Assembly: GCA_018389105.1 (NCBI GenBank)
Contig: JACATO010001125.1
Location: 1-64,000 of the forward strand
DNA: 64,000 nucleotides
From: Nautilus pompilius
Taxonomy: Eukaryota > Mollusca > Cephalopoda > Nautilida > Nautilidae
Direction: 5' to 3'
The notes below the pieces were generated by a model. The model was not told the DNA's origin, ran no database searches, and worked only from the letters and a program-made list of their open reading frames with translations. Position numbers and translations under genes: made by a program. Position 1 is the first letter of the stretch, and every line of letters begins with the position of its first letter. Of the stretch, positions 20,600 through 62,024 are shown one piece after another.

Positions 20600-21275
20600 C
20601 TCTCTCCCCCCTCTCTCTATATGTATACTGACGTCATATCTCTCCCCTGACGTCACCTATATCCGTATACTGACGTCACATCTCTCCCCTGACGCCACCC
20701 CCTCTCCGTATACTGACGTCACATCTCTCTCCTGACGCCACATTTCTCTCTATACTGACGTAACATCTCTCTCCTGACGTCACATCTCTGTATACTGACG
20801 TCACATCTCTCCCCTGACGTCACTTCTCTCTGTGCACTGACGTCATATCTCTCCCCTGACGTCACCTATATCCGTATACTGACGTCACATCTCTCCCCTG
20901 ACGTCACCCCCTCTCCGTATACTGACGTCACATCTCTCTCCTGACGTCACATCTCTGTATACTGACGTAACATCTCTCCCCTGACGTCACTTCTCTCTGT
21001 GCACTGACGTCATATCTCCCCCTGACGTCACCCCTCTCCGTATACTGACGTCACATCTCCTGACGCCACATCTCTGTATACTGACGTCACATCTCTGTAT
21101 ACTGACGTCACCCCTCTCCGTATACTGACGTCACATCTCTCTGTATACTGACGTAACATCTCTCTCCTGACGTCACATCTCTGTATACTGACGTAACATC
21201 TCTCCCCTGACGTCACTTCTCTCTGTATACTGACGTCATATCTCTCACCTTACGTCATCCCCTCCTCTCTCTCTC
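20600..21275. repeat. CRE-palindrome minisatellite, pyrimidine orientation (array 1)
   Basis: About 31 sites at roughly 20-bp spacing, of which by eye about 23 are intact TGACGTCA. The rest are mostly TGACGCCA or TGACGTAA. Spacers alternate between catctctcccc or catctctctcc and catctctgtatac or similar, so the basic repeat is often a dimer of about 40 bp. No site has lost its central CpG by transition. Minus-strand frames through the array are artefacts. Confidence 0.95.
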
Positions 21276-23329
21276 TCATTTGCGCTCCAAGTTAGGAGAC
21301 GAAACCAAAATCCCCCTTTGACTGGGCGAGAAGGAACGGAGGACTGGGATGGATTATTTCCGTTGAACTAAGTCGTTCTCGGTGCCCAGATGGCTTGCAG
21401 CAGCAACCGGTGTTCGATCCCGGTTTTCCGTCCTCTCCAGTCCCATTTCACTTTGCGTCTTTGACGGATGCCGTCGTCGTCCTTATCCTGAGATTTAAAG
21501 TAAATAACGCAAATTGTTGTCGTGCATATTTTTATTTTTCCGTTTTTTGGGAAGAGGGAGGCAGGTATTTTTGCCTTTTATTAAAAAAAAAAAAAAATGA
21601 TTGTCTGGCTTCAAGTCTTTAATCCATCTATTCTTTATTTTCCCCCACCGACTTGTTAGATGAGGGGCCGACGGCGCGTCTCATTATGCATATACTTCAT
21701 TTTGAATGAATCTTTTGTCGTTTTTCTCTTACGAATTCCAACGACCGGCACAAATGGAGACCAGGCGGACGACAGCACCAGCACCGAAGATAATATACTC
21801 CATTTAAATTTTAAGTGGGTGAAACGCGTTAAATAAAAAAGAATATATATATCCGCATAATTGTGACAGGTCAGAAACGCTGTAGGTCATCTCTAAGGGA
21901 ACGGTCGGGTCACGGCCGCGCCCCCCCCCCAACACGGATTCTGACACCGGAACCGGCTCCGGAGCGCTGATTGATGTTGCGGAAGGTTGGTTTTCGGCAG
22001 GAAACCCGATGGGAAAAAAAAAAAAAAAAATAGAGAGAGAGAGAGAGAGACGACCATTCGTCCCCACCGAGGTCCCTTAACACAGCCACGCCCTTGTTGA
22101 CTGCGACCTCTTTTATTTATTAGGGATACCGAGTTCTGGCGCTATTTTAGAAGTTCTTCTGGCATAGAAGCGAACCAGATACGGCAGCGGGTGATCTTCG
22201 CGAAGAGCCGGTACCTCCGGAACCAGGATTCGTCGCGCCTTTACTCGGGGAGGGGCCACCCCTCGCCCCTCGCGCCTCCCACCGATATCTACACACAAAC
22301 AGCGATCGCGCAATAAATATGCAAATCCGAAATGCGACAACGTCCAAAATCCTGTTCAGGCCGGGCTGGCGACGAGCTCGGGGGGGGGGTGAGGTTCTGC
22401 CTAACCCTAGGCGTTAGAGGCCTGGTTGGTGTACACGCCCAACCCCCTAGCGGAACTGCTGGGAAGTTATCCCCTTACCGCAACCGAGAACCCTTCTTGA
22501 TAATTAGACGGCACCAACAGCTAAATCAAAACGTTAGCAGTTTACCCGCCCCATGCGGGGGCCCTTCTTTGTCGTGTCTAGGTTGACGATTCCGATGTTG
22601 TTGCCCCCTCCCCTGGGCTGGCTAAAAGTACAGCAAGCGAAGCGGTGTCTGTTCCGTGTTCATCTGTTTGTCCCACCTCCTCCCCCGCGCGCTTCCTTTG
22701 ACAACCTTGACAGTAGCTTAGGTATATAAAACAGTTTTATCTTTATCGTTCTTGACAGATGCTTTTCTTTTTTTAATATTATGCATCAAACTTTGCGGTT
22801 AGTTGTGAGTTAAGTGAGAGGACTTTGCAGTCTTGTAGACATTTAAAGTCCTCGCTCCATATTATTATTATTATTACTTTTGTTATTTCTTCATCTACTC
22901 CAACAGCCAACATCTTTTATCTGGTTTTCATAACTAAAGAATTTATTTTTAACATTAAGCAACGTAAATGGAATGTCGAATTATTGTTGAAGGTCTCGGG
23001 CAGCCGGGCGGAATGGACCATCGGAGCTATTAGTACCGAAAACCTCAAGCGCGAGTGATTAGTAATACACTTTTCTTTACGGTCTACGTCTCTTGTGCGA
23101 AAATTCGCCCCCCGTATGTTTTGTTTTTGTTTTTTTTTTAACGGCAGATGAAGGATAATAAATACCGTGGCAGACAGACATATCGATCGGTTCTCGGTCA
23201 TGCTTTTAGTTCCTTCTACATTCTTTCGACAGCACCAGCTGTCAGTTCTTGAGAGACCGTGTAGAAGGGTTAAGATAGGACGGTGGGTAATTGGTAAAAC
23301 CATCACTACCACCGGGCCCACGAGAGGTG
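21276..23329. other. Intronic stretch, nothing recognised
   Basis: Mixed sequence with A and T homopolymers and a GA run near 22032. No supported gene or element. Confidence 0.4.
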
Positions 23330-24019
23330 GAGAGGGAGAGAGAGAGATATGACGTCAGTACAGAGAGTCAAACAGACAGAGACATGACGTCAGTACAGAG
23401 AGTCAAACAGACAGAGAGATATGACGTCAGTACAGAGAGTCAGACAGACTGAGAGATATGACGTCAGTACAGAGAGTCAGACAGACTGAGTGAGATATGA
23501 CGTCAGTACAGAGAGTCAGACAGACTGAGTGAGATATGACGTCAGTACAGAGTCAGACAGACTGAGTGAGATATGACGTCAGTACAGAGAGTCAGACAGA
23601 CAGAGATATGACGTCAGTACAGAGAGTCAGACAGACTGAGAGAGATATGACGTCAGTACAGACACAGAGAGATATGACGTCAGTACAGACAGACAGAGAG
23701 ATATGACGTCAGTACAGAGTCAGACAGACTGAGAGAGATATGACGTCAGTACAGAGAGTCAGACAGACAGAGAGAGATATGACGTCAGTACAGAGAGTCA
23801 AACAGACAGAGATATGACGTCAGTACAGAGAGTCAGACAGACTGAGAGAGATATGACGTCAGTACAGAGAGTCAAACAGACAGAGAGATGACGTCAGTAC
23901 AGAGAGTCAGACAGAGACATGACATTAGTACAGAGAGTCAAACAGACAGAGATGACGTCAGTACAGAGAGTCAAGCAGACTGAGAGAGATATGACGTCAG
24001 TACAGAGAGTCAGACAGAC

Positions 24020-24052
<33 letters not shown>
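23330..24052. repeat. CRE-palindrome minisatellite, purine orientation (array 2)
   Basis: About 19 units of 26-40 bp: atgacgtcagtacagagag followed by tcagacagactgagagat or a shortened version. All but one unit (tgacattag near 23920) keep TGACGTCA. The array ends in a pure GA run. Read on the opposite strand it gives gtactgacgtcatatctctc, the same core as array 1, so it is the same family in inverse orientation. Confidence 0.95.
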
Positions 24053-24054
<2 letters not shown>

Positions 24055-26040
24055 GTACTAACCATAACTTAGCGTTCTTTGGACTTTGGTCTGGGTTCTT
24101 GAGCATGCCTGCCTGCCTTACGAAAATAGGCGATATGTTGAACTGGAACCTTATCTTCAACACCGTCCCACCCAACCCTTAGCCTCCGCCCAGAACGAAA
24201 AACAGACCATTGCTCGATAATTGTATGAACAAAAATTAAAAGAAAACGTCTAGTTCTAAGGCAGGTTTATTTAGTTATTTATCACAGCTGTTTCTCTCTC
24301 CCCTTTACGGCGGCGTCACGTGTGTTCAGGGAACCGCTTAAGGGCTCTCGTCAAACGCCATCCTTAGATACAGTATAGACGGATACAAGGGTCTGTAACC
24401 AATACAAATCCGGCGCCTTTGGCGCAAGGAATGCACAGGAGCAGCGATAGCGTGCGGTCTCGCTCCGCGTCGAGTTGCAGGTAGGCAGTAGTGCCGAACA
24501 CGTCTGTTCGTTCGTCTGAGACGCCCCCCAACCACCTTATTGACCATGGCCGTCATCGCCGTAAAAAAAAATTCTAAATGGCCGGTTAACTCGGCCTCGA
24601 CAACTGGCTGCTGCCGTATTCCAGATCATCTTTGCGCTTGATTTTCAGAAGCCAGAACATTAAAATAAACAACAAAAAATAACGTCGAACCAGCAAACAG
24701 CAGCAGAGAGACTCGGACACGGATCTGCTTATTTGCCCTTTAATCTCTCTCCATCTCTTCTTTCTCAGGGACGAACGCGATAGCCCGTGCTCCCCGATAA
24801 ATGAATGCTCAGGATAGAGGCCGCCGTGTGGCAGGTATCGGTGACGAGGGGCTGGCTACATCTGTTTCTAGACCGCGTATGTTTTAGTCATTAACTCCGA
24901 TTGCGTCAGTTCCACGCGGTGGTGAGAGTTAGGTTTAGACACACACACACGTATCGGAAAAAAGTAGAATTACTCAGTAGCATCTGTGGCTATTCAAAGA
25001 CTTCTTTTGTGATTCCGTGTCGAGGCACCCGTTGTCTTCCTCGGCCAGTTCTAACTTTGCCGGATCGAATATCAGGCCCGCGAGCGCAGCTTCGACCCGG
25101 CTCGAGTTGAGTTTGAGCATCCAGCAGCATCAGCAGCAGCAGCATCAGCGTGGTTTTGAGTAGAATCTAGTTAAGTTGGTATAGTTGTTCAGACTTTGAT
25201 CACCTTGGTTAGCCATCGGGTTCGGGGGGGGGGTTATTGCTAGAATTCGATCAGCCCGTTCGGGCTTTCGTTCGATGAAGACATTGGGCACGGAGTCCAA
25301 ATCGCGACGACTCTGTTCTAGTCGCGTTGTCTGGGAATTACTTTCCAGAAGAAGTATTTAAAAAAAAAACAAAAAAAACAGAAATACCAGCGGTTGAGGC
25401 AGGTAATAGGGGTAATTCACACGCACCACCCCTCCTCCTACCACTTCCCGTGGAGCACCGCGGCAGGTTGACCGACCGACTGTCTGCCACGTGCTCGACA
25501 GCCCGTCTCAGCGCTAATAAATATCCCTTAGCTTGTTGTTCGCTTTTCCTGAGCGGAGATTTTAATTCCCGATAATGGGTGACTGATAGCCGCCTCCTCC
25601 TCCTCCTCCTCTTTTTCTCGCGAACTAAGTATTTGTTTGCCAAAGCCAAAAAATCAAATAGCCCGACTGACACCCGCCTCTCGCCTCGCGGTTCTTGAAT
25701 GAAAATCAGGAGGATGGCAGCTGCTGGGAAACCGTAGACGCCTCGTTCTCTCTCTCTCTCCCCCCATCCACGTATGGCAGCGGAAACGTGGTGGTAGTGT
25801 GTGTGTGTGCGCGTTTGGGAGGGGGTCAAGAGGAGTACCTTTAAAATAAATAATTCCGGGAGTCAGATATTATCGTGGTTTTCGAGGTGGGGGGGGGAGA
25901 AAATGGGGCTTGGTCTAAAAACAGCACTCGACGAGCGAGTGCGTGGTTTGGTTAACTCGCTCGCACGTGTGAGACGTGAGGTGCCGCGTCAGGGAACAGA
26001 CGGAAGGAAGCGGGAAGACGACAACGACGCGTCTGCGCCG
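24053..26040. other. Intronic stretch, nothing recognised
   Basis: Mixed sequence with a CAG run near 25123, A runs and a GT run near 25796. No gene or element was recognised. Confidence 0.4.
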
Positions 26041-26655
26041 CCGCTGCAGAAGGAGGGAGATGGCGAGAGAGAGAGATGGAGAGAGAGAGGGAGGGAGATG
26101 GCGAGAGAGAGGGGAGGGAGAGAGAGAGATGGAGGGAGGGAGATGGCGAGAAGAGAAAGAGATGGAGGAGAGAGGGAGATGGCGAGAGAGAGAGAGGGAG
26201 AGAGAGATGGAGGGAGGGAGATGGCGAGAGAGAGGGGGAGGGAGAGAGAGAGATGGAGGGAGGGAGATGGCGAGGAGAGGGAGAGAGAGATGTAAAGAGG
26301 GTGAGAGAGAGAGAGATGGAGAGAGAGATGGAAAGAGGGAGATGGCGAGAGGGAGGGAGAAAGAGATGGAGAGAGGGAGAGATGGCGAGAGAGAGAGAGG
26401 AGAGAGAGGAGAGAGAGATGGAGGGAGGGAGATGGCGAGAGAGAGGGGGAGGGGGAGAGAGAGAGATGGAGGGGAGGGGAGATGGCGAGAGAGATGAAAG
26501 AGGGTGAGAGGAGAGAGATGGAAAGAGGGAGATGGCGAGAGGGAGGAGAGGGGAGAGAGAGATGGAGGGAGGGAGATGGCGAGAGAGAGGGTGGGAGAGG
26601 GAGAGAAAGTGATTCGGTCGGTGTAGGGAAAAGGCTCTCTCTCTCTCTCTCTCTG
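26041..26655. repeat. GA-rich minisatellite with gatggcgag words
   Basis: A purine-rich tract built from gagggagatggcgagagaga and gatggagggagg blocks repeated at irregular 30-70 base spacing, ending in a TC run at about 26636-26654. Frames of 143-253 codons on both strands (Arg/Glu/Gly/Met or Ser/Leu/Pro-rich) are artefacts of this repeat. Confidence 0.92.
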
Positions 26656-29634
26656 GTCCGCTGTATCGACGCAAGTTGCTTACGCTTCTCTAGGGTTCGC
26701 ACGTGACGCCGGCGATTTAAATTAAGAGTTCTGCATTTACTCTCAATCACTACCGAATTGACGCCCTTTCGAATTCACGCGCGCGCGCAATGCCCTTGTT
26801 TTAATTCTTTTCAACGGTTGTCTCTCCCCTCGTTACTTTTTGTCTTTTTTGTTTTTTCACGATAAATTTTCGGTAGATAGAGGCGAGAAAATCAATCACC
26901 TTTCTGTCAGAACGGTGCCTATGAAGCAGGGATGGGGGCGGACGTGTAAAATGGTTGGGTCGGTTAGAGGAACCCTGACCTCACCGAAGACCGGAATGCG
27001 CTACTGACCGAAAGATCGGGACGGGATGAGTCGCCATCTGTAGCTGTCTACTTCCAAAAGAAGGGTTCCCGTGACCGCTTTAAAAAAAAAAAAAAAGAAA
27101 AAGGAGTTCTTACTGTCTTTGAGGAATGGTGCAGGGACTCTTCGCACAAAATCACACCTCGAGGTATTCATCCGCAAGGTGGACCGAATCACGGAGTAGA
27201 GGCTACCATCGCGCACCCATCTACGAGAACCGAAGAACACCCGGAAAGTTCTAAAAGTACATCATCATCATCGCCCGGCTAGCGCAACCCCGCGCAAAAG
27301 AAGAGAGACCTCTCAGGTGTAAAAGAGCTCTTGGGGATGCCTTCGGTCCCATAGCGGATGCGAAGACTCGCCGAGCCATGTCTATATGTGACAGTTGTAC
27401 ATTTTGGCGTTTTTCTTTAAAAGCCAAACGAATCTTCAGCCGAACCTCCCTGTTTGTTGGGAGACAATTTTTCGGAATTTTACCCATCAGCCACTTGCGC
27501 CTGGCGCAGCGAACTCTGAGCACGTGAACGTGGAGTCCGAACGAGCTGCGCAGAGCGTGAAACTCACTTGACTTAGGCGATGGACTGGAGGAAAGGGCGT
27601 AGTCTCTCTCTCTCTCACACACGCACGCACATATATATCCCGGGCCGTATGCACTTGAAATACTTGTAACCCGACCGCGTTCAGGCTACCGAGGGGGGAA
27701 AGCACCGGGTAGACTCTCTGTTTCCCCGGTGAGAGCGAGCCGTTGCTATGTGAGAAAACGTAGTATCCTGGAATGTCGATTAGGCCAGCTGTAACGAGTC
27801 GCGGTGCAGTGGGTGGGTTGACCGGAGAGGAAGGTGCTGGGAGGGGAGCGAGAGAGGAGGGTGGTGGTGGTGTTGGGCGCGCGCGGTCACCTGCCTCCCG
27901 ACCCGACTTCCATCAACACGTTTGCTTCCTGAAGCGCTGTAGCGCGCGGAACGTCACGAGGACGCGCGGACGTGAGCGAAGAACAGCGCAACCGGATCTC
28001 GTCGGCGGAGTCGCGTTCTCGATATCCCGGTGGGCTTGCGGCGCTCGATGCCGTTGTCCATCCCGGCTCAATCTAAAACTCTGCCCGCTCTAGGGGCTTC
28101 TTCTTGTCATCTCCGCCGCCCACCCGCGTCTGTCTCTGCGGGGTCGGATACAGAGCCTAGTTGTCGGTAGGTATCCTCCTCTCCGCTTTAATCTCGGGCA
28201 ACCCGGGCCTCAGTCTCGGACCCGTTGTGTTTCAACCCCTACCCTTCCCCCAAACTTCCCGTCTAAAGAATACCGCCTCCGACCAGAACTAGACGTCTTG
28301 GAGGAAAATGCCAGGAACGTAATTCCCTGTGCTATAATTCGCAGGTTTTGCAAGTTACAACGATTTCGGTCAGTCACGATCCTCGAAATCAACTTCCAAA
28401 CTTTTGGACGGAACCTATAACGCAACCAGTATATAGTAAATGTATTGGGGCGGTTCTTGGTAATTTGAATAGTAACGGAGGTTGGAAAGTCTGTTTTCAG
28501 CATTTCCCAAATAAGGAAACGGGGACTTTGTGTCAGAATTTGGCTGAACTATTTTGCAATGAAATACTTGTTTTTTACAGTTCCGCTGAACTCTTCCCAA
28601 CTTTTTGGAAAGTTTACCGACCGCATCTAAAGAGCTGTTTTGTTTGTTTGTTGTTTTTTTTTTGATATCTGTCTCTACATCCACCATGTATCCGACTTTT
28701 AGTCGCAGATACGCGAAACCATCCTCATCTTTACTCCTAGTCTGAGTTTCTCGTTTCGATATCCTACCTCGAAAAAGCCAATCACAGGCGCCCACAGGAT
28801 TTCGGTAAACGCGCGGAACTAGTCCGAGACAACCACGGAGAAGACCTCACCTCTGCCAGGAAGCGGAAGTAAGGGTCTTGCTACTTAAAAAAAAAAAAAA
28901 AGAAAGAAGAAATCCATTATTATCTCTTTTAGTGTTTTAAATTCGGCTGAATGGAAAGTCACAACTTCCGGTTTTTTGGACCCGCCGCTTGAAGTCCCTC
29001 GCATGCGCCTCGCTTTGCCCCATCGGTCTTATCGCATCACGAATTTCGTTTCGAACCACCGACCGAGGGTTTAAGTCTTGTTGGATATCCGTAATCCAAC
29101 CCCAACACGCACACACGCACACACACAGACAGATAGTTTTATTAGCCTTGCTTAGATTACTCATCTCCAAAAAGTCCCGTCCTCACGACGCGGCCATTAA
29201 CCGTCATGGGAATCGTTACCAAAGGCTCGCGTTGTGCCGGTATTATTTACCTACCCCATCCCTCTCTTCTCGGTTCGGGAGGGAGGGGGAGAGAGAGAGA
29301 GGGGGGCGGCGGTAATGCCTTGCCGAATGACGTCGGCACTCCTTAGAAAGGCTTTCAGGCGATCCCGGCGCAAATCGGTATTGGCAAGAGGGAGTTGGAA
29401 ATAGCTTGGCTGCTCCGAAGAATTTCGCCGATGAAGGAGGCGGATCTCGCGAACGAGGAAATATCTCCGCCGCCGCCGACGAAGATAACGCGAGCGTGTC
29501 GTTTTCTGAAGATATACGGTCGCCCCTGACAGTAGCACCAGTTCTCCCCGGAGACATTTATGGCAACGCCCAATATCTACTTAGTTTTCTGCGTACGAGG
29601 CTTGCGCACCGATCTCTCCAGCACCCTAACCCGA
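26656..29634. other. Intronic stretch, nothing recognised
   Basis: Largely unique sequence, CpG-rich around 27.8-28.2 kb, with a CA run near 29106 and a short GA run near 29290. Several frames of about 100-126 codons have no recognisable domain. Confidence 0.4.
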
Positions 29635-29986
29635 CCCTTAAAGATATGCAGATATTGTTAACGGGTTCGGATCGGTTCAATCATACATTAAGTAATAACG
29701 AGGTTTCCGTCTGGGCGTAGAATTTTCGGGTGTTAGTAGATTTAAACTGATCGGCAAATATATAATTTGTATCCTCCACAAGGGGGCGGGGCAGACTTAG
29801 CGCTTGGTTGGCCCTTAAAGATATGCAGATATTGTTAACGGGTTCGGATCGGTTCAATCATACATTAAGTAATAACGAGGTTTCCGTCTGGGCGTAGAAT
29901 TTTCGGATGTTAGTAGATTTAAACTGATCGGCAAATATATAATTTGTATCCGCCACAAGGGGGCGGGGCAGACTTAGCGCTTGGTT
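29635..29986. repeat. 177-bp tandem duplication
   Basis: The segment starting cccttaaagatatgcagat at 29635 is repeated at 29812, exactly 177 bp later, and both copies end with cttagcgcttggtt. By eye they differ at only about two positions (cgggtgtta versus cggatgtta, and atcctccac versus atccgccac). The duplication is recent, or one copy has been homogenised. It interrupts the open frame at 29406-29720, which is not supported as a gene. Confidence 0.95.
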
Positions 29987-30269
29987 TTACGAACTTGAGA
30001 AAGCAGCAACGGAATTATATGGATTATCTTCTCTTTGACATCTCTTTGCATGACTTAGGAGTGGGGGACATGCCCTTCATAGCCCTTCATAATTTCCTCT
30101 CTATATATCCTCATGATTTTATGGATCTAGAAGTAATGCCGTCGTTAACGTTAACGACTGTCATCGGATGGCGTTATCTACCGTCTCAGCCGTTATCTGA
30201 CGCGGGATTATCACAGAACGGGCTCCACTTTCGTTTGTTCAATGCCGATCTTTCGACGAAACGTTTCTA

Positions 30270-30500
30270 GTTGAGCAGGCTGCTGCTGCTGCTGCTGCTG
30301 CTGTTTAAGTGGTTGGACGTCCAAATGCCGAGTCGTCCTCGTTGCTGAGAGATGTTCGTCGAGCCGACAAGCGACCCGGTCCACCCGACACCGGGGGCCC
30401 CGCCCCAAGGACCCGGGAGGTCTCTCTCACGTCGGGCTGCTGCTGCTGCTGCTGCTGCTGCTTGGGCTCGGCCGTGTCTGTCAGTAACCACCGGAGGCAG
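30270..30500. repeat. Dispersed repeat family, copy B
   Basis: Second copy of the repeat at about 1820-1935. It is flanked on both sides by CTG runs: (CTG)n at about 30279-30303 and again at about 30437-30462. The core keeps gttcgtcgagccgacaagcg and gacaccgggggc. Same orientation as copy A. The triplet runs appear to belong to the element, because copy A has decayed versions of them. Confidence 0.65.
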
Positions 30501-31419
30501 GCTGGCTGAAAGAGTTTCCGCGGCGCACCCTAGGAAACGTCGTCGATCCAGTTTTTCATCTGCCTGATTGATGCTGCTTCTTGCGCTTTAAAAACGAGGG
30601 CAGGAAGTCGGATCCGGGCAGTTAGTACTCCAGAGGGCGTGGTGACATTGCTCGACCTCTGCAGGTTTTACAAGATGACCCCTACCTCCTCCCCCCCCCA
30701 ACCAGGCCTCATCCCAAACGCGCTGCTCGCAGGGGGAAAAAGTGCACAAGAGAGCTCTGGCGACGTGCAATTCAGCCTCGGGAGAAGCCCTCCTCCCCCC
30801 ATCGGCGGTTATTGCCTGAAAGAGTGTTTACCCAGCGGTTAGCCAGCCGGTTTCGGCTCACCCCGCCCGTCTCCGCTAGCCACGTGTCGACGAGTCGGCG
30901 TTCTTGACGGTAAAAGCCTGCTGCAGCGAAGGGGATGGGATGGATGGTGGGTAACCAACTCGATCGCGGCTCCAGAACCGACCCGCCGTATATCTCGTTG
31001 TACTTGGCATCTCACCAGCATCTTTCACACCCAGTCTGCTTTCCCTACTGCTATCGCTAAACCGAGCTTAACTGGTCGTCCCACTATTAAAGCCATCGTC
31101 TTAAAGCGGCTTTTCCTGAGATTTCCTCCGGGAAATGCGGAACCGGTCCGGACCGTGTGGCTTTAGGCAGCCGCATTACCATAGTTTGTCGGACCGAGCC
31201 ATCGGCTTTTCGATGGCGGATTAGGAGCCACGCAGATTTCACTGTCAAAGAAATAATTTTTAACCGATCGCCCTAAAACTAGAAATATTAGGGTTTGGGG
31301 TGGTGGGTTGCCGCAGGGTGCCCGTGCGACGAGTTGGCAGAGAGAGAAAGGGGGTTTGTGGCAGCTCCCGTTCGGTACCACTGGCCACGAGACAACCAAC
31401 CTTCGAGCCTGTGGATGAT

Positions 31420-31450
<31 letters not shown>

Positions 31451-32154: not shown

Positions 32155-32755
32155 CGCTCTCTCTCCCTCTCTGTACTTGACGTCATCTCTCTCTCTTTCC
32201 TCTCCCTCTCCTCTCCCCTCTCTGTACGGACGTCATCTCTCTCTTTCCCTCTCCCTCTCTCTCCCTCTCTGTACGACGCCATCTCTCCTCTGTATCCGAC
32301 GTCATCTCTCTCTCTTTCCCTCTCCCTCTCTCTCCCTCTCTGTACTGACGTCATTTCTCTCTCTCTCTGTATCCGACGTCATCTCCTCTCTCTCTCTGTA
32401 GCCATCCGACTTCATCTATCTCTCTCTCTCCCTCTCTGTACTGACGTCATTTCTCTCTCTCTGTATCCGACGTCATCCCTCTCTCTCTCTCTCTGTACTG
32501 ACGTCATTTCTCTCTCTCTGTATCCGACGTCATCTCTCTCTGTACTGACGTAATCTCTCTCTGTACTGACGTCATCTCTCTCTCTGTATCCGACGTCATC
32601 TCTCTGTATCCGACTTCATCTATCTCTCTCTCTCCCTCCCTCTCTGTACTGACGTCATCTCTCTCTGTATCCGACGTCATCTCTCTCTCTCTCCCTCTCT
32701 GTACTGACGTCATTTCTCTCTCTCTGTATCCGACGTCATCTCTCTCTCTCTCTCG
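32155..32755. repeat. CRE-palindrome minisatellite, pyrimidine orientation (array 3)
   Basis: Alternating units of ctgtactgacgtcatttctc and ctgtatccgacgtcatctct, with TC runs of variable length between them. The cores alternate between full TGACGTCA and CGACGTCA. The array ends at a TC run at about 32753. Frames up to 161 codons across it are artefacts. Confidence 0.94.
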
Positions 32756-34421
32756 TCCTGGAACTTTCTTAGCTATTTGCTGGCACCATAACTGCAGCGA
32801 TGTCTCCCAGGCCAGACGAAGGGGGTTACAGGGCAATCGAAAACTTATGAAACAGAACAGAAATCATCACACAGCTAACTAGTGGGATTTGTTTGTTTGT
32901 TTTTTAACTCACTAACGTCGTAAGCTACTCGAATCGGTAAGTAGTCTCCCACAAACACTCCTCCCCTATAAGCGGGTGTGGTTTTGTATGAAGTCTAAAA
33001 CAACTTTCTATCCGCTGATAACCGAAGGCGGGATAGTTGGGGAGGGGCGGAAGTAATGCGACGCTAAACGAAGCCTGCTGGCTGCTAATTCGCCTACAGT
33101 TTTGACCACTGGAAAATTCGCTAGAGTTCTAGACGTACAGTAGCAGCCTGAGGATGAGGAGGAGGGGAGAGAGAGAGAGAGAGAGAGTGCGTGCCCCTGT
33201 TCAGTTTGCGAGGGTGGGGTCGGGGGCTCCTGTTGTGGCATTTAATTGTGGGAGCCTAATGATCGGCCGAGAGAACTTCAGCTCCAGCCTACTGATGTTG
33301 CTGCACGTAAAGAGATGGACCGGAGTAAACGCGGTCATGAAATATCCAACCGCTGTCCGGCAAAGGAGATCTGACCCGCGCCGCGTCAGATGGCTGACAG
33401 ACAGGTGCGTGGAAGCCGGAAGTGCCCTTCACGAATATTCGGAGATACCCGGATTCCTTGGCTCTCTTTTGAAGCGCTCACTCGTCCTTTCTTCGCGCTG
33501 GAGGCGATAGAAACTTGAAGTTATCCTGTTCCAAACCAGGGTGGGAGGGGGCATCGACCTAAGCGTCGGCTCCTCTCTTGAGATAAAATCTGGGCCCCAC
33601 CCGGAACAGACACGCTCACCTGTCGCTTGAAGGCAACAACTCTTGTTAGCAGGTGTGGGAAGATCAAATATAGATCCCACCAAAACCCCCCCGGATTTCT
33701 CATAAAGCATCGCTTGAAAGAGAATACATGAATAAAGCTAGGCAAATTACGGCCCCCAATTTTCGTTATAATGTGTAATTATTTTAAATAACGTTGTAAA
33801 CTGCTGACTTGGAAACCCCCCAAAATGGGGTGGGTGGGAAAACTCGTGCATTAAAAACTCAAAAGAAATAATATATAGTCACAAGGTAACAGTAACCCGC
33901 AATTAGGGTGGTGCTTTGTTCAAAAAAATATATTTCTGTCATTTATACGACTAAATACGTTCGTCCCCCCCACCCAACCCTGTCGGGGTTTAGGGATCTT
34001 TCACGAAGTGCAAACGTAAGACTAATCCAGTCGTACGTCTTTAGATCGTTTCAGCATCTGCTGTGTTAGAAATTCCCTTGGCATCTTGCTCTCTCTCGGT
34101 TGGCTTCTTTTCAAAATTAGAGAATTCCTCGGTAACGCCTATTCCTTCGCTTCATCTTTTATGCTATAAAGCGAATCAAAGGCGTTCAGACGATGTGTCG
34201 TTAGATAAAAATAATACAATGCCTTCTTTAGAATTTTCAATATATTGTCCTAAAATACATAGCACCTTTAGGGTGCATTCTTTCCATTAAAACTAAATGC
34301 TTGGGAACTTCTCGGAAATGGAATAGAAATATCTGAAGTGAGGGTTCAGCAAACTATATATGAAACGATACTTCGAGAAATCTTACAGTTTAAACGCAAT
34401 TCTTGTTTTCTGTCGGTTGAA
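32756..34421. other. Intronic stretch, nothing recognised
   Basis: Mixed sequence with a short GA run near 33165. A 118-codon frame (33154-33510) begins in the GA run and has no recognisable domain. Confidence 0.4.
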
Positions 34422-34735
34422 ATATCGATTCTCGTTACTCCGCGTTGGTACTAGATCGAATATAGGCAACATATCGATTCTCGTTACTCCGCGTTGGTGC
34501 CAGTCGAATATACGACAACATATCGATTATCGTTACTCCGCGCTGGTACTAGTTGAATACACGACAACATATCGATTATCGTTACTCCGCGCTGGTACTA
34601 GATCAAATATATGGATACGATACGACGACAACATATCAATCATCGTAACCCCGCGGAGATGCCATATCGAATACAACCAACTACGACAGTATATCGATTA
34701 TCGGAAAGCCGTAACGGACATTATGTCGATCATTA
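34422..34735. repeat. 49-bp degenerate tandem repeat
   Basis: Units start with atatcgattctcgttactcc or atatcgattatcgttactcc at 34422, 34471, 34520 and 34569. The first three steps are exactly 49 bp; later units are longer and diverged. The whole array is open in one frame (161 codons, 34360-34845), but because 49 is not a multiple of 3 the repeats are read in successive frames. The frame is therefore probably chance, not a repeat protein. Confidence 0.88.
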
Positions 34736-35565
34736 TCGCAAAGTTAGATTGCATCTCATTCATCAGCTACAGTAGGGATATTCTGCTCCTTCGGCAAGTA
34801 GAGGTTTGGGCGGAAGGTGGATGGACCGCTGCGAGCTTTAATTAGCAGCCGGCGAGCGTTTTTGTATATTTGAAACATTGGAAAGTTTTTTTGTTTTGTT
34901 TTCCTCGATATTTATCTCAAATCATTTAACGATCATTGTTTGGTAAAGAAAACAACAACAACAACACAACAACAAAAACGTACCGATAAACGGCAGGAAG
35001 TTATAGACAGACACCCTTCCGCCACCAGTCTTCTCCCTTAGCCTCTTCTGATTGATTCGAAAAGGGAGCTGCATCACGTGACATCTCAGTCTAGTCTGGA
35101 GGAACGTTCAACTACAACGAGGCTGGAACGGCATTCTCAACCCCACCCAACCACCCGCCGCCGGGGGAAGGGGTTTCACTAGAACGCCGATAATTGAAGG
35201 TAAAGAATGGATTTCTGTCCAACTCTCCGGCCCACTTGTTCGAATTAAAGATTCCCGTGAATGGATAAGCAATCTTGTATATGTATTTAAAAAAAAAAAT
35301 CCGCGAATAATAGCAATAATAATTAATAATAATCACCATCATCAGCATCATCTTTCAAGTCTGGTCCAGCGGTCGGAGTGACCTTGGTACTCGGTATTTA
35401 TCGATGGACTTTTGAAGTGACGGACTAACCCCGAGAACTCTTGCACGTGTACTATTCGAGAAAACTGGTCTCATAAAGCGATCTCGTCGCGCATCGTAAG
35501 AACCCTTGTCTCTGAGTGGCGGTCATTGTATGTGGAGGGATTATTTTTAAATAAACACACCCATG
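34736..35565. other. Intronic stretch, nothing recognised
   Basis: Mixed sequence with CAA and A runs near 34951-34975 and short CAT/AAT runs near 35310-35350. No supported gene or element. Confidence 0.4.
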
Positions 35566-35653
35566 TAGAGAGAGAGAGATATGACGTCAATACAGAGAGA
35601 GATATGACGTCAATACAGAGAGAGATATGACGTCAATACAGAGATATGACGTC

Positions 35654-35714
<61 letters not shown>
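35566..35714. repeat. CRE-palindrome minisatellite plus GA run (array 4)
   Basis: Four units of gatatgacgtcaatacagag at 22-28 bp spacing, flanked by GA runs, the right one about 55 bases long. All four keep TGACGTCA. This is the shortest array and may show the seeding state: a GA microsatellite carrying a few copies of the palindrome. Confidence 0.93.
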
Positions 35715-35719
<5 letters not shown>

Positions 35720-36159
35720 TGTTGACTAAAAGTAACGAATAACCAACACTGCACACCCCATCCTCCTTTTTGGTCTCTCTGTCGATGAATCTAGAATTGT
35801 AATATCAATGAATCTAAAATTGTAGTCTTAATACAACTGCAATCTTAGCCATAAGGGTTTTCTGTTATATCTTTGAGTCGGACGAAGCCGAAAACGGCAG
35901 CTCTGCATAGATTGGTATTTGATTGATTTTCCGGTGTCACACCGCAACCTGTCATCCGCTGAAATAGTAGCATTCCGAGTTCTACCGTTCGGTATGCTCG
36001 ATCCACAGGATATAACCATATTAGCAATTACATGATGTAAGGAATTTGTTTTTTTTTTTAGAAGCATCACATTTACTATTTGCAATAGCCTTTTTCTTTT
36101 TACTTGGGGTTTTTTGTAAAAAAAAAGGTTCTACTTTGTATGTATTGAGTAATCTCCCG
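35715..36159. other. Intronic stretch, nothing recognised
   Basis: Mixed sequence with short T and A runs. No gene or element was recognised. Confidence 0.4.
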
Positions 36160-36622
36160 CTCCTGATGTCATATCTCTCTGTGTATTGACGTCGTATATC
36201 TCTATATATACTGATGCCATCTTTATGTACAGACGTCATCTTCCTCTCCTGATGTCATATCTCTCTGTGTATTGACGTCGTATATCTCTATATATACTGA
36301 TGCCATCTTTATGTACAGACGTCATCTTCCTCTCCTGATGTCATATCTCTCTGTGTATTGACGTCGTATATCTCTATATATACTGATGCCATCTTTATGT
36401 ACAGACGTCATCTTCCTCTCCTGATGTCATATCTCTCTCTGTATTGACGTGGTATATCTCTATATATACTGATGCCATCTTTATGTACAGACGTCATCTT
36501 CCTCTCCTGATGTCATATCTCCTCTGTATTGACGTGGTATATCTCTATATATACTGATGCCATCTTTATGTACAGACGTCATCTTCCTCTCCTGATGTCA
36601 TCTTCTCTCTCTCTCTCTCTTG
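36160..36622. repeat. 86-bp higher-order CRE-like repeat (array 5)
   Basis: Units begin tcctgatgtcatatctctct at 36161, 36247, 36333, 36419, 36505 and 36590, so the period is 86 bp with one 85-bp step. Each 86-bp unit contains four related sub-units of about 21 bp with different cores: TGATGTCA, TGACGTCG (or TGACGTGG), TGATGCCA and AGACGTCA. This is a four-part higher-order repeat built from diverged CRE monomers, ending in a TC run. Confidence 0.94.
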
Positions 36623-37645
36623 CACTTCTATTATTCATTTTACCGTGATTCAGTAAGAGAGGATAGGTAGTATGTTTAATCGTTTTAATGAAGAATCTAA
36701 ACGATTCCGCTTTCTTCGTATATTAATATCGTTTTATCTACAAGAAACTTTATTTTCATACTAGAAGAAACGGCTATTTTTATATTAATTACTCAAACTT
36801 GGCCGAGGCGGGTTAAGGTTAAAGAATTCCAGCTGGAAACTCTGCGTTATAACATCAAACGTTTTGAAAGTGTTATCTTGTAGGATTAGAAGCGACCAGA
36901 CAGATATTTTGCCTCCATGTTCAATGATCCTGTTGTTTCGTCCGCACGGCTTCTTTAGAGTAAACAAGACGACGACGGCTCTTTAACAGTGCGCGCACAT
37001 TTCGCATAGCGAATAGTTTTTAAAACCCGTCCCGCCTGCTTTATCTGGTCAAGTTTAGAGTGCGCGCGAGACCATCCACGATTGCATGACCCGTGCCGTC
37101 GTAAATTAGCCCAGCCAGACATCAACGCAAATTAGCAACATGCAGCTGCACAACGTGATTCGTGTAATTAAAGAGCCAGCTTCATTGGCGAGGTATTAGC
37201 AGGCCCCATATTTCTCATAGTCGATATGGGTGTGGCGTCTTCTTGCCAGCTGGATACTGGCTTGATTGACAGCTCGCTCGCACCTGCCTGATTAAAGGGT
37301 TGGGGGGGAGGGAGGGGCTAAGCACGCCGTCTCGACGCAAACTTGTTGCTTGCCGATAAAATATGCGTAACTTCATTATAAAGATGCATTACTGAGACAT
37401 CCGTGCAGTTCCAGGGGGCGGCGGTCTTCTTAGGGTGCTTTCGGGTGAAAACACGTAACTCTGGGAGTTTGCTTCAGGCGTGTCGTATGGAGCAGGGATG
37501 GCGAGCGGGAACCTTGCAGATGAAAAAAAAAAGGGAAGGAAGAGAGAAACGATATACGAAATTCGAACGACTTCGCCCCGAGCAAACGTGACCGTTTTTC
37601 GTTCGTTTGTCGTCACGTCCTCCTCCTCCGCGCTGTCAATCACCG
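36623..37645. other. Intronic stretch, nothing recognised
   Basis: Mixed sequence; no supported gene, RNA or element. Confidence 0.4.
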
Positions 37646-37737
37646 AAAAGGAGAGAGATGGATGGAGAGAGAGAGATGGAGATATGGATGGAGATGGATA
37701 GAGAGAGACTGGAAGAGATGGATGGATGAGAGAGAGC

Positions 37738-37775
<38 letters not shown>

Positions 37776-37842
37776 GAGATCGCGAGATGGATGGATGTGA
37801 CTTGACTGGATGGATGAGATGTCTCTCTAGAGATCTGGATTT

Positions 37843-37880
<38 letters not shown>

Positions 37881-38030
37881 CGAGAGATGGATATGGATGG
37901 CCGAGAGAGCTGTACTGGTTGGGCAGGGATAGAGAGGCGAGATGGATGGAATGGATAGAGCGAGAGAGCTGGATGGCTCGCGAGAGAGGAGCGCTGAGAG
38001 AGAGAGATGTAGAGGCTGGAGGATTCGAGA
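37646..38030. repeat. GA / GGAT minisatellite
   Basis: Mixture of (GA)n blocks and gatggatgg words, with interruptions such as gagctag and gatcgcgag. Less regular than the CRE arrays and without the TGACGTCA core. The 156-codon minus frame and 111-codon plus frame here are artefacts. Confidence 0.88.
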
Positions 38031-39120
38031 TTGAGGATAGCGCGAGCTCTGGATTGCGCGATTTCTTGCTAGCGAGGAGAGATCTCGGTCGATTAAGGCT
38101 AAACAATGCGGCGCTGTCGTAATCCTAGCGGTTGGCGAGAGGGATGGTTAGTTACAAACCGGAATCGCTTGGCCGCTGCACTGAAGTGCAAAGGAACTCG
38201 CAGACCTTCCTTCTACAGCCGCGACCTCGAATGGTTTGGCTGGGAAGGGAATTAGATCTCCACAGGTGGGGGTGAGAGGTTTGCGGATTTGGAATTTAAA
38301 AAAAAACGAAAAGGTTACCGTATTAAAACCAGACGATGAAAAGCTAGGAAAAATTGAATAAAAATACTTAAAGCGGGTGAGAAACAAACATGATCATCAA
38401 TTCCACGATTAGATTTACACCCCCGGATGTAATTAATGGTATCATCTTCTCAGAGAACCCCGTCTCCTGATTTACTGTACTTTTGAGTGCAAAATCATCA
38501 CCTTTTTATCTTTAATTTTAGATTTTTCTTTTAAAAAAGTTGTTTCATTAACTTAAATTTTAGCCCAGGATCATCTTGATGCAAAATGCAAGTACCCAGG
38601 AGTACCTCCCACGACACTCCCAGGAATCTCTATATTATAGGGTCTTCTGAAGAATTGAAGGAAAGAACGAAGAGGTTATGTTAATTACAGCTGTAAACAA
38701 AGCATCAAGTGATGTCCAAGATGTTCTTGACTCGGAAACATCAGAATGGAAGGTTTCAGATCAGAGAATATCCATTGGGGCTGGGTGGGCACTACCTGGC
38801 AGGTAGAAAAACACAATATGTGGCGAAAGATGCAACATTTCACTCTCCAAGCTATCATTTACTTGGTGTCCGGTGTCCCTTCATATTGCACCGCAAAAAA
38901 CCATACAGTAGTTCAGATATGAGCCATCATCATAGTAGTGTGTTGTCATAAAACCATGCTGAATACTGCTGTTATGGGTACTTTTGCTTGATTTCGAACA
39001 ATATAGATTATATAGCAGTGGTTAATTTTGCCAGTTCTAACTAGGATTAGTAAATAAACGTGTTCAGTCAGGCTTGACTGATATGCTAACGAGTTTTTTT
39101 TTTTTTCCCCCGTTGGAATT
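38031..39120. other. Intronic stretch, possible outer part of a hAT remnant
   Basis: Mixed sequence. The last few hundred bases before 39.1 kb may belong to the hAT remnant that follows, but no transposase motif is readable here. Confidence 0.3.
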
Positions 39121-39940
39121 GCTAGTTAATTTCACAACAGGTTCTTTGTTGGAAAGAAAATCCAAGACAGTTTGTCAAGAAGTGTTTGCACAGTGATGAG
39201 AAACGTGCTTGTAGTAGATCAGTGGAAGAAAGCACTGAATCTTTAGTTGATGACTGCATCAGGGATCCTAATGTATGAACAATGCAAAGAAACAAAAGAT
39301 TCATCATCATTGGATGGAACCCGAACAGAAGAAAAAGAATATGTTGTAGAACGAATATGTGGCAATGTATGCAAAATTGTAGACGATCTGGAGCGCAGTT
39401 TTGATGACAGTAATGAATGTTTGCAGAATTTATGTTTATTCCAGGAAAAAAAACTAAATTGTCTACTAAAACTGGGGTACAGCCAGCTACGATTCTGGTG
39501 TTACTGAAGTTGAGATGGTGTAGGAACACTACTAGATTTCGTTCACTGACCTGATACTGAAATCTGATCAGTACAAGAGGTTAATTGGCCATAAATTATG
39601 CAGACCTGACTATCTGAACCTGCAAGCATTATCATCTTTTTCCCCCTTCTTTTTGCTTAGTAAATTGGTTGGATGTGTGCCAGATATGATCATCTTGTTG
39701 GAGCTGATTGTGGCTGTACCTGCGTCGAGTGTAGAATGTAGAAGCTGGATTACAACCCCCAAATTATATTGTATCAAAAGTTAGGACCTTGAGTAATAAC
39801 AGCCGATTAAAAAATGGCCTGATGAGAATTTCAGGAGGAAAGTGCGAGATGAATGAGTTTGATTTTTCACTGCAATTAAGAGGAAATCCAGAAAATCATA
39901 TAAACATTAATCAACACGTGTGATCTGTGCCAATCACTGA
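39121..39940 (+). pseudogene. Decayed hAT-superfamily transposase (KIAA1586/ZNF862-like), C-terminal part
   Basis: Around 39694-39900 two frames together give the C-terminal dimerisation region typical of hAT transposases. LLELIVAVPASSVEC is followed, after a frame change, by VRTLSNNSRLKNGLMRIS, matching the usual 'sV.CErgFS ... K..LR.rL....L..LM.I' layout. Upstream, 39247-39507 is open and contains a plausible spacer segment (ICGNVCKIVDDLERSFDD). In-frame stops and frameshifts show the copy is inactive. The N-terminal BED finger and catalytic residues were not found, and terminal repeats and target duplications were not identified. Confidence 0.6.
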
Positions 39941-40344
39941 CTTCTGAATTTCAGTTTCTATTCTGCAGTAAATAAATATATATATTTTTTGTTGCACAAA
40001 TTAAGCGGTATTGTTATTAACAGAGTATTTAGTAACGTGAACAAGTTTGTTTGACTCCATATGAGTAACATAAATGGATATTATTATTAAGCCTCCCAAT
40101 TAAAAAAAAAATACTTCTTTTTCCTTTATAACCAATGGCAAGGGGGGAGAGTTGGGTGGGGGTCCCTTTTCCCTTCTTTTGGACAGCCAACTTTGGGTCT
40201 GACAATCTGAAAATTCCAAATAGATCTGTGTTTTAATTACATATGTATCATTTCTGTATTTACAATTATGACAGTAGTGTAAGAAAGTTATGTAACTTTG
40301 GACCACATGTGTGTGCGCGCGCGTGTGTGCGTGATAATAAAAGA

Positions 40345-40772
40345 GAGAGATATGACGTCAGTACAGAGAGAGATGTCATTACAGAGAAAGATATGACGTC
40401 ATTACAGAGAGAGATATTACGTCAGTACATAGAGACGTCATTACAGAGAAAGATATGATGTCAGTACATAGAGACGTCATTACAGAGATATGACGTCAGT
40501 ACAGAGAGAGATATTACGTCAGTACATTGAGAGACGTCAGTACAGAGAGAGATATTACGTCAGTACATTGAGAGACGGCAGTACAGAGAGAGATATTACG
40601 TCAGTACATTGAGAGACGTCATTACAGAGAGAGATATTACGTCAGTACAGAGAGAGATATTACGTCAGTACATTGAGAGACGTCATTACAGAGAGAGATA
40701 TTACGTTAGTACATTGAGAGACGGCAGTACAGAGAAAGATATGACGTCAGTACAGAGAGAGAGAGATAAAAA
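40345..40772. repeat. CRE-palindrome minisatellite, purine orientation (array 6)
   Basis: Alternating units of gagatattacgtcagtacat, tgagagacgtcattacagag and gagatatgacgtcagtacag at about 20-25 bp. Cores are mixed: TGACGTCA, TTACGTCA, AGACGTCA and AGACGGCA. The dimer pattern (ttacgtcagtacattgagagacgtcattacagagagaga, about 45 bp including both halves) is repeated through the middle. It starts next to a GCGC/GTGT run near 40310. Confidence 0.94.
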
Positions 40773-41155
40773 ATGTCCTTAAGAAAGTCAATAGCACTGC
40801 TAAGTCGCTTGCTCTATAAATATTTATGCCGATTTTCTTCCTATTACTCACATCCTGTTTTTAATTTCTGCCTTTGTGACTTCGGAGCCCCACCCAACAA
40901 CTGAAAAACAACGCGATACAATGCGCGCTCGTTTCGTTGGGAAATGTTTTGTTCGCCTCGAGGCGGGGGGGGGGGGTGGTGGTGACGTCACGCCGGCCTT
41001 TCATCATCGATTGACGGTCTGCTAGGCGGGTGGGCGGCCCGAATTCCTGTTTGAAGCCAGCGGCGGACAGACACATCCCCCACCGCTCATTCTGTCTCTC
41101 TAAACCTTTTGTCACAACCTGCCTCAACCTATCCCCGGCCGAATTTGAAATACTA
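40773..41155. other. Intronic stretch, nothing recognised
   Basis: Unique-looking sequence with a G run near 40965; no gene recognised. Confidence 0.4.
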
Positions 41156-41230
41156 GGGACGTTCAAACGAAACTCGGCCAAGATGAGACTGCCGCTAATG
41201 GTATCCGGCCGGCTTTCATTTGAACGTCCC
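41156..41230. other. 75-base hairpin with 24-bp stem
   Basis: The left arm (41156-41179, starting gggacgttcaaacgaaa) pairs with the right arm (41207-41230, ending catttgaacgtccc). The stem has 24 positions with two mismatches and one G-U pair, and the loop is 27 bases. Size and shape are compatible with a microRNA precursor, but also with a tiny inverted-repeat element. No homologous miRNA was recognised. Confidence 0.5.
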
Positions 41231-41434
41231 CAGCATAACATTCCGTCGACGGAAACAAGGGTATATTATTTGTATTGAATAATCCGAGTAGAAATAAGGT
41301 GGCGACAATGAATTGTATGGCGATCTGGAATAATTTCCGAAATAACTTAAATGTCTACTGGCGGTAATATGAGTTACCTGGTTTTTAAATGTGCAATTTC
41401 TCCATAATAATAGATTCACTTTCTATTCTCTGTA
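41231..41434. other. Intronic stretch, nothing recognised
   Basis: Short AT-rich interval between the hairpin and array 7. Confidence 0.4.
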
Positions 41435-42100
41435 ATGACGTAATTTCCCTGTTCTCTATAATGACATCATCTCTATGTTCTTAATAATGACATCATCTCT
41501 CCGTTCTCTCTAATGACATCATCTCTATGTTCTTAATAATGACATCATCTCTCCGTTCTCTGTAATGACATCATCTCTATGTTCTTTATAATGACATCAT
41601 CTCTCCGTTCTCTGTAATGACATCATCTCTCTGTGCTCTGTAATGACGTCATCTCTCTGTTTCAATGACATCATCTCTCCGTTCTCTGTAATGATGTCAT
41701 CTATCCGTTCTCTGTAATGACATCATCTCTCTTTGCTCTGTAATGACGTCATCTCTCTGTTTCTTTATAATGACATCATCTCTCTGTGCTCTGTAATGAT
41801 GTCATCTCTCTGTTCTCTGTAATGGCATCATCTCTCTGCGCCCTGTAATGATGTCATCTCTCTGTTCTCTGTAATGGCATCATCTCTATGCGCCCTGTAA
41901 TGACGTCATCTCTGTGTTCTTAATAATGGCGTCATATCTCTGCCCCCCCTTAATGACATCATCTCTGTGTTCTTTATAATGGCGTCATCTCTCTGACCCC
42001 CCTGTAATGACATCATCTCTCCGTTCTCTGTAATGACATCATCTCTATGTTCTTTATAATGACGTCATCTCTCTGCCCTCTGTAATGGCGTCGTCTCTCT
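41435..42100. repeat. CRE-derived minisatellite with decayed cores (array 7)
   Basis: About 26 units near 26 bp, pattern ctgtaatgacatcatctctc. Cores counted by eye: TGACATCA 13, TGACGTCA 4, TGATGTCA 3, TGGCATCA 2, TGGCGTCA 2, TGACGTAA 1, TGGCGTCG 1. Most differ from TGACGTCA by transition at the central CpG on one strand or the other. Two unit types (ccgttctctgtaatgac and atgttctttataatgac) partly alternate, giving a 52-bp dimer. It ends about 100 bp before exon 2, followed only by a short T/C-rich stretch. Confidence 0.95.
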
Positions 42101-44815: not shown

Positions 44816-44816
44816 G

Positions 44817-44921
44817 AGGGAAAAAGAGGAGAGAGAGAGATGGAGAGATGGATGGAGAGAGGGAGAGAGAGATGGAGAGATAGATGGAGAGAGAGGAGAG
44901 AGAGAGAGAGAGAGAGAGATT
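44817..44921. repeat. GA-rich tract with gatggatgg words
   Basis: Purine-only interrupted (GA)n tract resembling those at 5.6 and 26 kb. Frames across it are artefacts. Confidence 0.9.
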
Positions 44922-58942: not shown

Positions 58943-58999
<57 letters not shown>

Positions 59000-59890: not shown

Positions 59891-59929
59891 ATTGTTCATT
59901 CCAAAATTGGTAAACTCCATAATACTTCA

Positions 59930-61993: not shown

Positions 61994-62024
<31 letters not shown>

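What the first reader, a model, noticed from the sequence alone, without database searches (positions are those of the whole stretch)
20600..42100. A family of minisatellites built around the CRE/ATF palindrome TGACGTCA fills the giant intron
Seven separate arrays (20.6, 23.3, 32.2, 35.6, 36.2, 40.3 and 41.4 kb) plus one outside the intron (56.5 kb) carry the same 8-base palindrome in different spacers and periods (about 20, 22-24, 26, 37, 45 and 86 bp). They occur in both orientations. Shared flanks (gtac next to the core, then gagagat or atctctc) show common ancestry rather than chance. An 8-bp TF-type palindrome as the conserved heart of a mobile or seeding repeat family, arranged as dozens of sites in one gene's intron, is unusual. 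Possible explanations are (1) selection for CREB/ATF or bZIP binding, (2) a palindrome that promotes slippage or recombination within GA tracts, or (3) spread by a carrier element. The sequence alone does not decide.
Basis: partly seen in the sequence, partly recalled or inferred. Interest (0 to 1): 0.72.

Follow-up and report, generated by a model that had tools for sequence, protein, structure and literature searches.

The report
Genome-wide minisatellites with a CREB-like core
The arrays are real and belong to one family of short tandem repeats, a 23-letter unit holding a consensus CREB/ATF-type site inside GA repeats, found at very many places in this animal's genome, so the case is less about one gene's intron and more about an unusual genome-wide supply of such sites whose function is untested.

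Summary
The observation largely holds: TGACGTCA occurs 63 times in the window (0.81 expected), 60 of them in six arrays. Two of the eight named arrays (36.2 and 56.5 kb) hold only relatives of the core. The reading changes once the genome is searched: TGACGTCA-N15-TGACGTCA occurs at 4,110 places in the 727.6-Mb assembly, the reversed control at 0. The consensus is a 23-bp unit, TGACGTCA-GTACAGAGAGAGATA, of fixed polarity, embedded in GA tracts. In the rows listed, the core between fixed flanks is 94.5% identical per base and the spacer between fixed cores 88.1%: the units are homologous and the core drifts about half as fast. Flanks of 33 loci share no carrier at the array edges. Flanks are CpG-rich at 24 of 24 loci, against 24 of 100 background pieces, but those loci were found by an intact-CpG query. 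Best reading: a dispersed minisatellite family spread and amplified through GA-tract homology (route inferred), with bZIP binding a plausible, untested reason for core retention. A CRE/M26-type recombination hotspot is the boldest reading not excluded.

The parts
20622..21264 (-). array, 42-bp double unit (19+23 bp), 23 exact TGACGTCA
   Evidence: purine strand is minus
23339..24054 (+). array, 35-39-bp unit, 18 exact TGACGTCA, ends in a GA tract
32160..32754 (-). array, about 21-26-bp units in CT tract, 7 exact TGACGTCA and CCGACGTCA variants
35571..35713 (+). short array of 4 units of 23/19 bp close to the genome-wide consensus, running into pure (AG)n
36152..36610 (-). array of an 86-bp higher-order unit made of four diverged core units (TGATGTCA, TTGACGTCG, TGATGCCA, AGACGTCA); no exact TGACGTCA
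40342..40762 (+). array, units of 23 bp and about 18 bp; 4 exact TGACGTCA, 6 TTACGTCA
41422..42100 (-). array, 26-bp unit, mostly TGACATCA/TGATGTCA/TGGCGTCA, 4 exact TGACGTCA; ends about 100 bp before the splice acceptor of the NIDO exon
56520..56940 (+). array, about 43-bp unit with TGGCGTCAGTACAC in GA tract, in CpG-poor DNA; no exact TGACGTCA
12695..13198 (.). possible distant relative: 13.6 copies of a 37-bp unit with cGACGTCAtg, no GA tract
   Evidence: relation to the family not shown
42200..42511 (+). nidogen-like (NIDO) exon; context of the 41.4-kb array
   Evidence: PF06119, E 5.8e-28, 98.6 bits; acceptor at 42,199 read by eye

Best explanation
The arrays are members of one dispersed minisatellite (short-array satellite) family of this genome. 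Its consensus unit is 23 bp, TGACGTCA-GTACAGAGAGAGATA, lying in GA tracts of CpG-rich, by inference unmethylated, DNA. Copies reach new GA tracts because the unit is itself half GA repeat: a break or stalled fork in one GA tract is repaired from another (gene conversion, template switching, or reinsertion of excised circles), which carries the core across in a fixed polarity. Unequal exchange and slippage then amplify and homogenise each array, giving private periods (19+23, 26, 35-39, 86 bp). The TGACGTCA core is kept partly by descent and partly, perhaps, because a CREB/ATF-type bZIP protein binds it. Shown: the family, unit, polarity, GA embedding, CpG-rich setting of the sampled loci, absence of a shared carrier in the sample, and slower drift of the core in the rows listed. 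Inferred: the route of spread, methylation state and any protein binding.
For: Genome-wide counts with low controls: 710 N14 pairs, control 0; 4,110 N15 pairs, control 0; 384 flank-selected pairs, control 1; 2,690 flank-selected units, control 31. The unselected 8 bases between fixed flanks are the exact core in 61 of 100 listed rows (rows) and 63 of 100 (rows). Consensus and polarity over 319 exact cores in 30 loci. Array edges sit in purine/pyrimidine runs: 34 of 60 edge windows of 60 bp have a run of 16 or more, against 29 of 731 windows of the same size further out; 21 of 30 arrays have such an edge. All 86 matches among 66 flanks of 33 loci: 38 between window flanks (overlaps and array matches), 22 purine/pyrimidine-rich, 20 core-bearing, 6 other, none of these 6 at array edges. 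Flank CpG o/e at least 0.7 at 24 of 24 loci against 24 of 100 background 2-kb pieces; GA tracts 4.28 bp/kb in 5 CpG-rich and 0.29 in 15 CpG-poor background stretches. Spacing differs from array to array.
Against: A few loci have spacers poor in GA (L003 with two cores only, L032). The route of spread was not observed: no related genome, empty site or read data could be searched. The core's lower divergence (5.5% against 11.9% per base) is not predicted by pure copying and slippage, the less so as the core holds a CpG. The CpG-rich setting was measured only at loci found by an intact-CpG query, which biases it; the 56.5-kb array of the window lies in CpG-poor DNA.
Confidence: 0.6

Rival explanations
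1. Selection for CREB/ATF (bZIP) binding: arrays act as clustered regulatory sites, and copies that keep a bindable core persist.
For: Core drifts about half as fast as the spacer between loci although it holds a CpG; in the arrays fetched, core identity given an exact flank is 0.81-0.87 and flank identity given an exact core 0.72-0.79 (with the variant flank ATACAGAGA it is only 0.48); pooled within-array substitutions 56 of 1,242 core positions against 168 of 2,538 others in nine window arrays (sums over, core defined within 2 mismatches on the TRF consensus). Commonest variants (TGATGTCA, TGACATCA, TTACGTCA) are, by recall, still bZIP-type sites. CpG-rich, perhaps open setting.
Against: No fixed spacing or helical phasing. 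Of the nine window arrays the core varies less than the rest in three, about equally in four, neither varies in one, and in the 32.2-kb array it varies more (0.129 against 0.040). Variants at the CpG are what mutation alone would give; parts of the flank are conserved nearly as well; thousands of loci are more than enhancers need. No binding or expression data.
Confidence: 0.25
2. bZIP-bound meiotic recombination hotspots: as at S. pombe M26/CRE, an Atf/CREB protein bound to TGACGTCA opens chromatin for Spo11, and recurrent breaks at the core breed minisatellites and copy the unit into other GA tracts.
For: The M26/CRE motif makes hotspots in S. pombe and S. cerevisiae (passages of PMC3534124, and PMC9775316). 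The window has 13 merged tandem arrays (period 9 or more, at least 2.5 copies) against 2 in 200 kb of background. Arrays cluster: 15 of 19 loci of contig C1 lie in its first 333 kb.
Against: PMC9775316 states that the CRE inside ade6 itself is not bound and is not hot. GC of array flanks is not significantly above CpG-rich background (0.407 against 0.390, P 0.16), so no sign of GC-biased conversion. Hotspot motifs normally erode (established knowledge). No recombination map.
Confidence: 0.12
3. [quoted passage not shown]
For: Short satellite arrays inside Helitrons are known in an oyster (passages of PMC10048060); the family is dispersed in the same way.
Against: 66 flanks of 33 loci, all against all: no shared sequence at array edges; the six matches that are not GA-rich, core-bearing or between window flanks are a roughly 90-bp dispersed element (four rows) and two short matches, all hundreds of bases from the arrays at unequal distances.
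Confidence: 0.1
4. Structure-driven amplification: each palindrome is complementary to every other copy, so a single strand of an array folds into hairpins with an 8-bp stem and a GA loop that make polymerase slip and breaks form.
For: One unit alone does not fold (0 kcal/mol) but three tandem stretches do (-8.4, -14.5, -11.6 kcal/mol, z -3.8 to -6.5). Where two changes occur in the listed rows, 5 of 10 rows are again palindromes (TAACGTTA 4 rows at one locus, TGAATTCA 1 row), more than I would expect by chance; a symmetric protein would favour the same.
Against: Any palindrome would serve, yet alternative ones are rare: 5 copies against 325 exact cores, 5 of 100 rows at 2 of 52 loci, 0 of 5 two-change rows; the commonest variants break the palindrome. 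Can add to array growth but does not explain this sequence.
Confidence: 0.1

Closest known systems
Dispersed short-array satellite DNAs of the Pacific oyster (passages of the review PMC10048060)
   Same: Short tandem arrays scattered along chromosomes without large blocks, in an invertebrate genome
   Different: There dominantly inside Helitrons; here no carrier found, the unit is 23 bp and half GA repeat, and holds a consensus CRE palindrome
Jeffreys-type minisatellites with a shared core (recalled, no call)
   Same: Arrays with different periods sharing a short core, clustered in some regions
   Different: Core is an 8-bp TF-type palindrome in GA tracts, flanks homologous as well
S. pombe ade6-M26 / CRE hotspots (passages of PMC9775316, PMC3534124)
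   Same: Core contains the CRE; possible link between bZIP binding and recombination
   Different: M26 is a single site, not an array; no recombination evidence here
GGAA microsatellite enhancers bound by EWS-FLI1 (search listing and starts of abstracts only)
   Same: Tandem repeat made of transcription-factor sites
   Different: Those are microsatellites bound by a tumour fusion protein; here no binding data

Membership tests
Dispersed minisatellite / short-array satellite family | Same unit tandemly repeated at many separate loci | tested here: met
   L001-L004 and L025-L044 read
Dispersed minisatellite / short-array satellite family | Array-private variants from local homogenisation | tested here: met
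   private periods; 94 distinct spacers, 8 of them shared between loci
Transposon with internal tandem repeats (Helitron type) | Shared sequence or ends next to the arrays | tested here: not met
   66 flanks of 33 loci; old or very diverse carriers not excluded
CREB/ATF regulatory array | Exact consensus CRE, kept better than its surroundings | tested here: met
   (between loci, first listed rows only, the two sides from differently selected loci); within arrays the effect is small and mixed
CREB/ATF regulatory array | Occupancy by a bZIP protein and effect on transcription | not testable with these tools
   no ChIP, ATAC or expression data
M26/CRE recombination hotspot | Raised meiotic breaks or crossovers at the motif | not testable with these tools
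   indirect proxy, GC rise in flanks, not significant (P 0.16)
Palindrome/hairpin-maintained repeat | Palindromy kept by paired changes | tested here: inconclusive
   TCACGTGA 3 and CGACGTCG 2 copies against 325 exact cores; but TAACGTTA (4 rows, one locus) and TGAATTCA (1 row) are 5 of 10 two-change rows, and 0 of 5

The most novel reading that the evidence does not exclude
A self-spreading repeat whose engine is a host bZIP protein: CREB/ATF binding to TGACGTCA opens GA-rich chromatin in the germline, breaks there copy the unit into other GA tracts, and the genome has so acquired thousands of clustered consensus CREs that can both steer recombination and wire new genes to cAMP or stress signalling.
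Probability: 0.12. Interest if true: 0.85.

Novelty: new variant of a known kind. Interest (0 to 1): 0.52.

Why it matters
If the sites are bound, one animal genome carries thousands of ready-made clusters of consensus CREs scattered by a simple repeat, a natural case of how a transcription-factor site can be broadcast without a transposon. It also offers a test of whether the CRE-hotspot link known from two yeasts reaches animals. If they are not bound, it is a clear case of a minisatellite family that spreads, as it seems, through microsatellite homology.

Tried and rejected
Carrier element: rejected for this sample. Hairpin as the whole explanation: alternative palindromes rare, though not absent. 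Fixed helical spacing of sites: not seen. Chance: rejected. Rfam match in the window: none at gathering score. Host gene: of 20 open frames given to Pfam one reached its family's cut-off, NIDO. Naming the organism: COX1-like nuclear copies read with the invertebrate mitochondrial code look mollusc-like by recall only; not settled. A published description: the listings showed none, in one library only. Never answered: a second palindrome control (TGAGCTCA pairs) and a variable-gap count. A decayed-form search (TGACATCA-N15 pairs, 322 places, control 0, against 4,110 intact pairs) was meant to show arrays in methylated DNA, but its loci could not be cut out, so the compartment result rests on intact-core loci.

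Weak points of the counts. The tallies use only the first rows listed by the tool (100 of 384; 100 of 2,690; 50 of 4,110; 50 of the 710), which come from the first contigs. The two sides of the core-spacer comparison come from differently selected loci (18 fixed bases, 16). The extrapolation to about 2,200 loci with an exact 23-bp pair is rough. The background of 20 stretches of 10 kb comes from three contigs that themselves held arrays, at even steps. The 24 flank loci are all distinct loci in the list (50 of 710 places). A first comparison of purine runs used windows of unequal size and is replaced. One search printed 59 of its 86 matches; one search sorted all 86. In this check I moved the structure rival from 0.08 to 0.10 and its membership row to inconclusive because of the palindromic variants.
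Full report
What is in the window. TGACGTCA occurs 63 times in 64 kb where 0.81 is expected. Sixty of these lie in six tandem arrays at 20.6, 23.3, 32.2, 35.6, 40.3 and 41.4 kb. The arrays at 36.2 and 56.5 kb hold only near relatives of the word. On the purine strand the sequence reads GAGAGATA-TGACGTCA-GTACAGAGAG; arrays lie on both strands of the window. The 86-bp unit at 36.2 kb is a higher-order unit of four diverged core units about 19-25 bp apart (read by eye), and the 42-bp unit at 20.6 kb is a 19+23 double unit. An array at 12.7 kb with a 37-bp unit holds GACGTCA without the GA flank; its relation is open.

The family is genome-wide. The window is the first 64 kb of a 179.5-kb contig in an unnamed 727.6-Mb assembly of 2,558 contigs. 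Core pairs at N14 spacing number 710 and at N15 spacing 4,110; the reversed pattern, itself a palindrome of the same composition, gives 0 in both. The consensus unit is TGACGTCA-GTACAGAGAGAGATA, 23 bp. Twenty-seven loci hold the 50 listed N15 places, which scales roughly to 2,200 loci. Loci are clustered: on contig C1, 19 loci from the lists, 15 of them in the first 333 kb of 1.05 Mb.

Core against spacer. Selecting by flank leaves the core unselected. Between GAGAGATA and GTACAGAGAG the eight bases are TGACGTCA in 63 of 100 listed rows and on average 94.5% identical per base over 35 loci. Between longer fixed flanks the figures are 61 of 100 rows and 94.7% over 52 loci. Selecting by two exact cores leaves the spacer unselected: 88.1% identity to the consensus over 27 loci, 29 distinct spacers in 50 places. 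At the rarer N14 spacing the commonest base of the spacer is found on average in 65.9% over 24 loci. So the core changes about half as fast as the spacer, but the whole unit is homologous. Inside the nine window arrays the difference is small: 56 of 1,242 core positions against 168 of 2,538 others differ (sums over), the core being the steadier in three arrays, about equal in four, without change on either side in one, and the less steady in the 32.2-kb array. In the arrays fetched, the commonest single-change variants are the two CpG transitions TGATGTCA (11 loci) and TGACATCA (12 loci) and the polar TTACGTCA (8 loci; its mirror form on the purine strand once), the last suggesting an inherited subfamily.

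Setting. The genome is split into CpG-rich and CpG-poor stretches, the pattern of mosaic methylation known in many invertebrates (established knowledge; methylation itself not measured). All 24 array loci from the list have flanks of CpG o/e 0.82-1.30, against 24 of 100 background 2-kb pieces at 0.7 or more. GA tracts are about 15 times denser in the 5 CpG-rich than in the 15 CpG-poor background stretches, so the arrays may simply follow GA tracts. Array edges sit in long purine or pyrimidine runs: 34 of 60 edge windows of 60 bp hold a run of 16 or more, 29 of 731 windows further out. In the window the 56.5-kb array is the exception, in DNA of o/e 0.37.

The host gene. A nidogen-like exon at 42,200-42,511 follows the 41.4-kb array after a splice acceptor, so that array is intronic if the exon is not the first. 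No upstream exon was found among the 20 frames tested, so the size of the intron is not confirmed. The window has 13 merged arrays of period 9 or more and at least 2.5 copies against 2 in 200 kb of background: it is a repeat-dense place, as parts of C1 are for this family.

How it works, most likely. The unit is half GA repeat, has one polarity with respect to it, sits in GA tracts, and shows no common carrier in 66 flanks. The simplest account is spread between GA tracts by homology-based repair or reinsertion, then local amplification. That step is inferred. Slower core drift needs an extra cause; binding by a CREB/ATF-type protein is the natural candidate. Structure may help: neighbouring cores do pair, and at two loci the core has changed to another palindrome (TAACGTTA, TGAATTCA), but such replacements are few against hundreds of exact cores. 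The link to CRE-dependent meiotic hotspots in two yeasts is a lead; one review says that not every CRE is bound or hot.

What is known. Dispersed short satellite arrays are known, for example in an oyster, where they dominantly lie in Helitrons (passages). Tandem repeats that act as transcription-factor platforms are known (GGAA repeats; listing). The listings of four searches showed no account of this family. I file it as a variant of dispersed minisatellite families: new are the consensus CRE core, the GA embedding and the scale, not the kind.

Noticed in passing
L050-L094 (genome contigs): A scan for three TGACGTCA at exact 22-bp pitch found 45 stretches in prokaryotes, 38 of them in few genomes: 15 in Prevotella (AATA-TGACGTCA-TATTT, fixed core, variable spacers) and 23 in one Verrucomicrobia MAG, Tb.RUG.75 (inverted flanks). 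Spacers unlike the window family; looks like a separate bacterial dispersed repeat with a fixed palindrome.
   Followed up: partly
window 41145-41239: About 90-bp element with inverted ends (gggacgttcaaacga...tcatttgaacgtccc) matching L001 and L003 at 69-74%: a dispersed MITE-like element, not at array edges.
   Followed up: no
window 39247-39504, +: Open frame with a sub-threshold match to Mediator subunit 2 (E 2.1e-4, 21.9 bits, cut-off 26.8).
   Followed up: no
window 17402-18260, 29635-29986 and 34422-34611: Tandem repeats of 40, 177 and 49 bp without the core: the region is rich in tandem arrays in general.
   Followed up: no
window 1-43000 against 44000-64000: CpG o/e in 2-kb steps falls from 0.60-1.38 before about 44 kb to 0.29-0.67 after it, a likely methylation boundary soon after the NIDO exon.
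   Followed up: partly
G000, 117 matches: Many nuclear copies of mitochondrial COX1 pieces, a large share with the same match borders (196-283, 281-346), as if one nuclear insertion had been multiplied.
   Followed up: no
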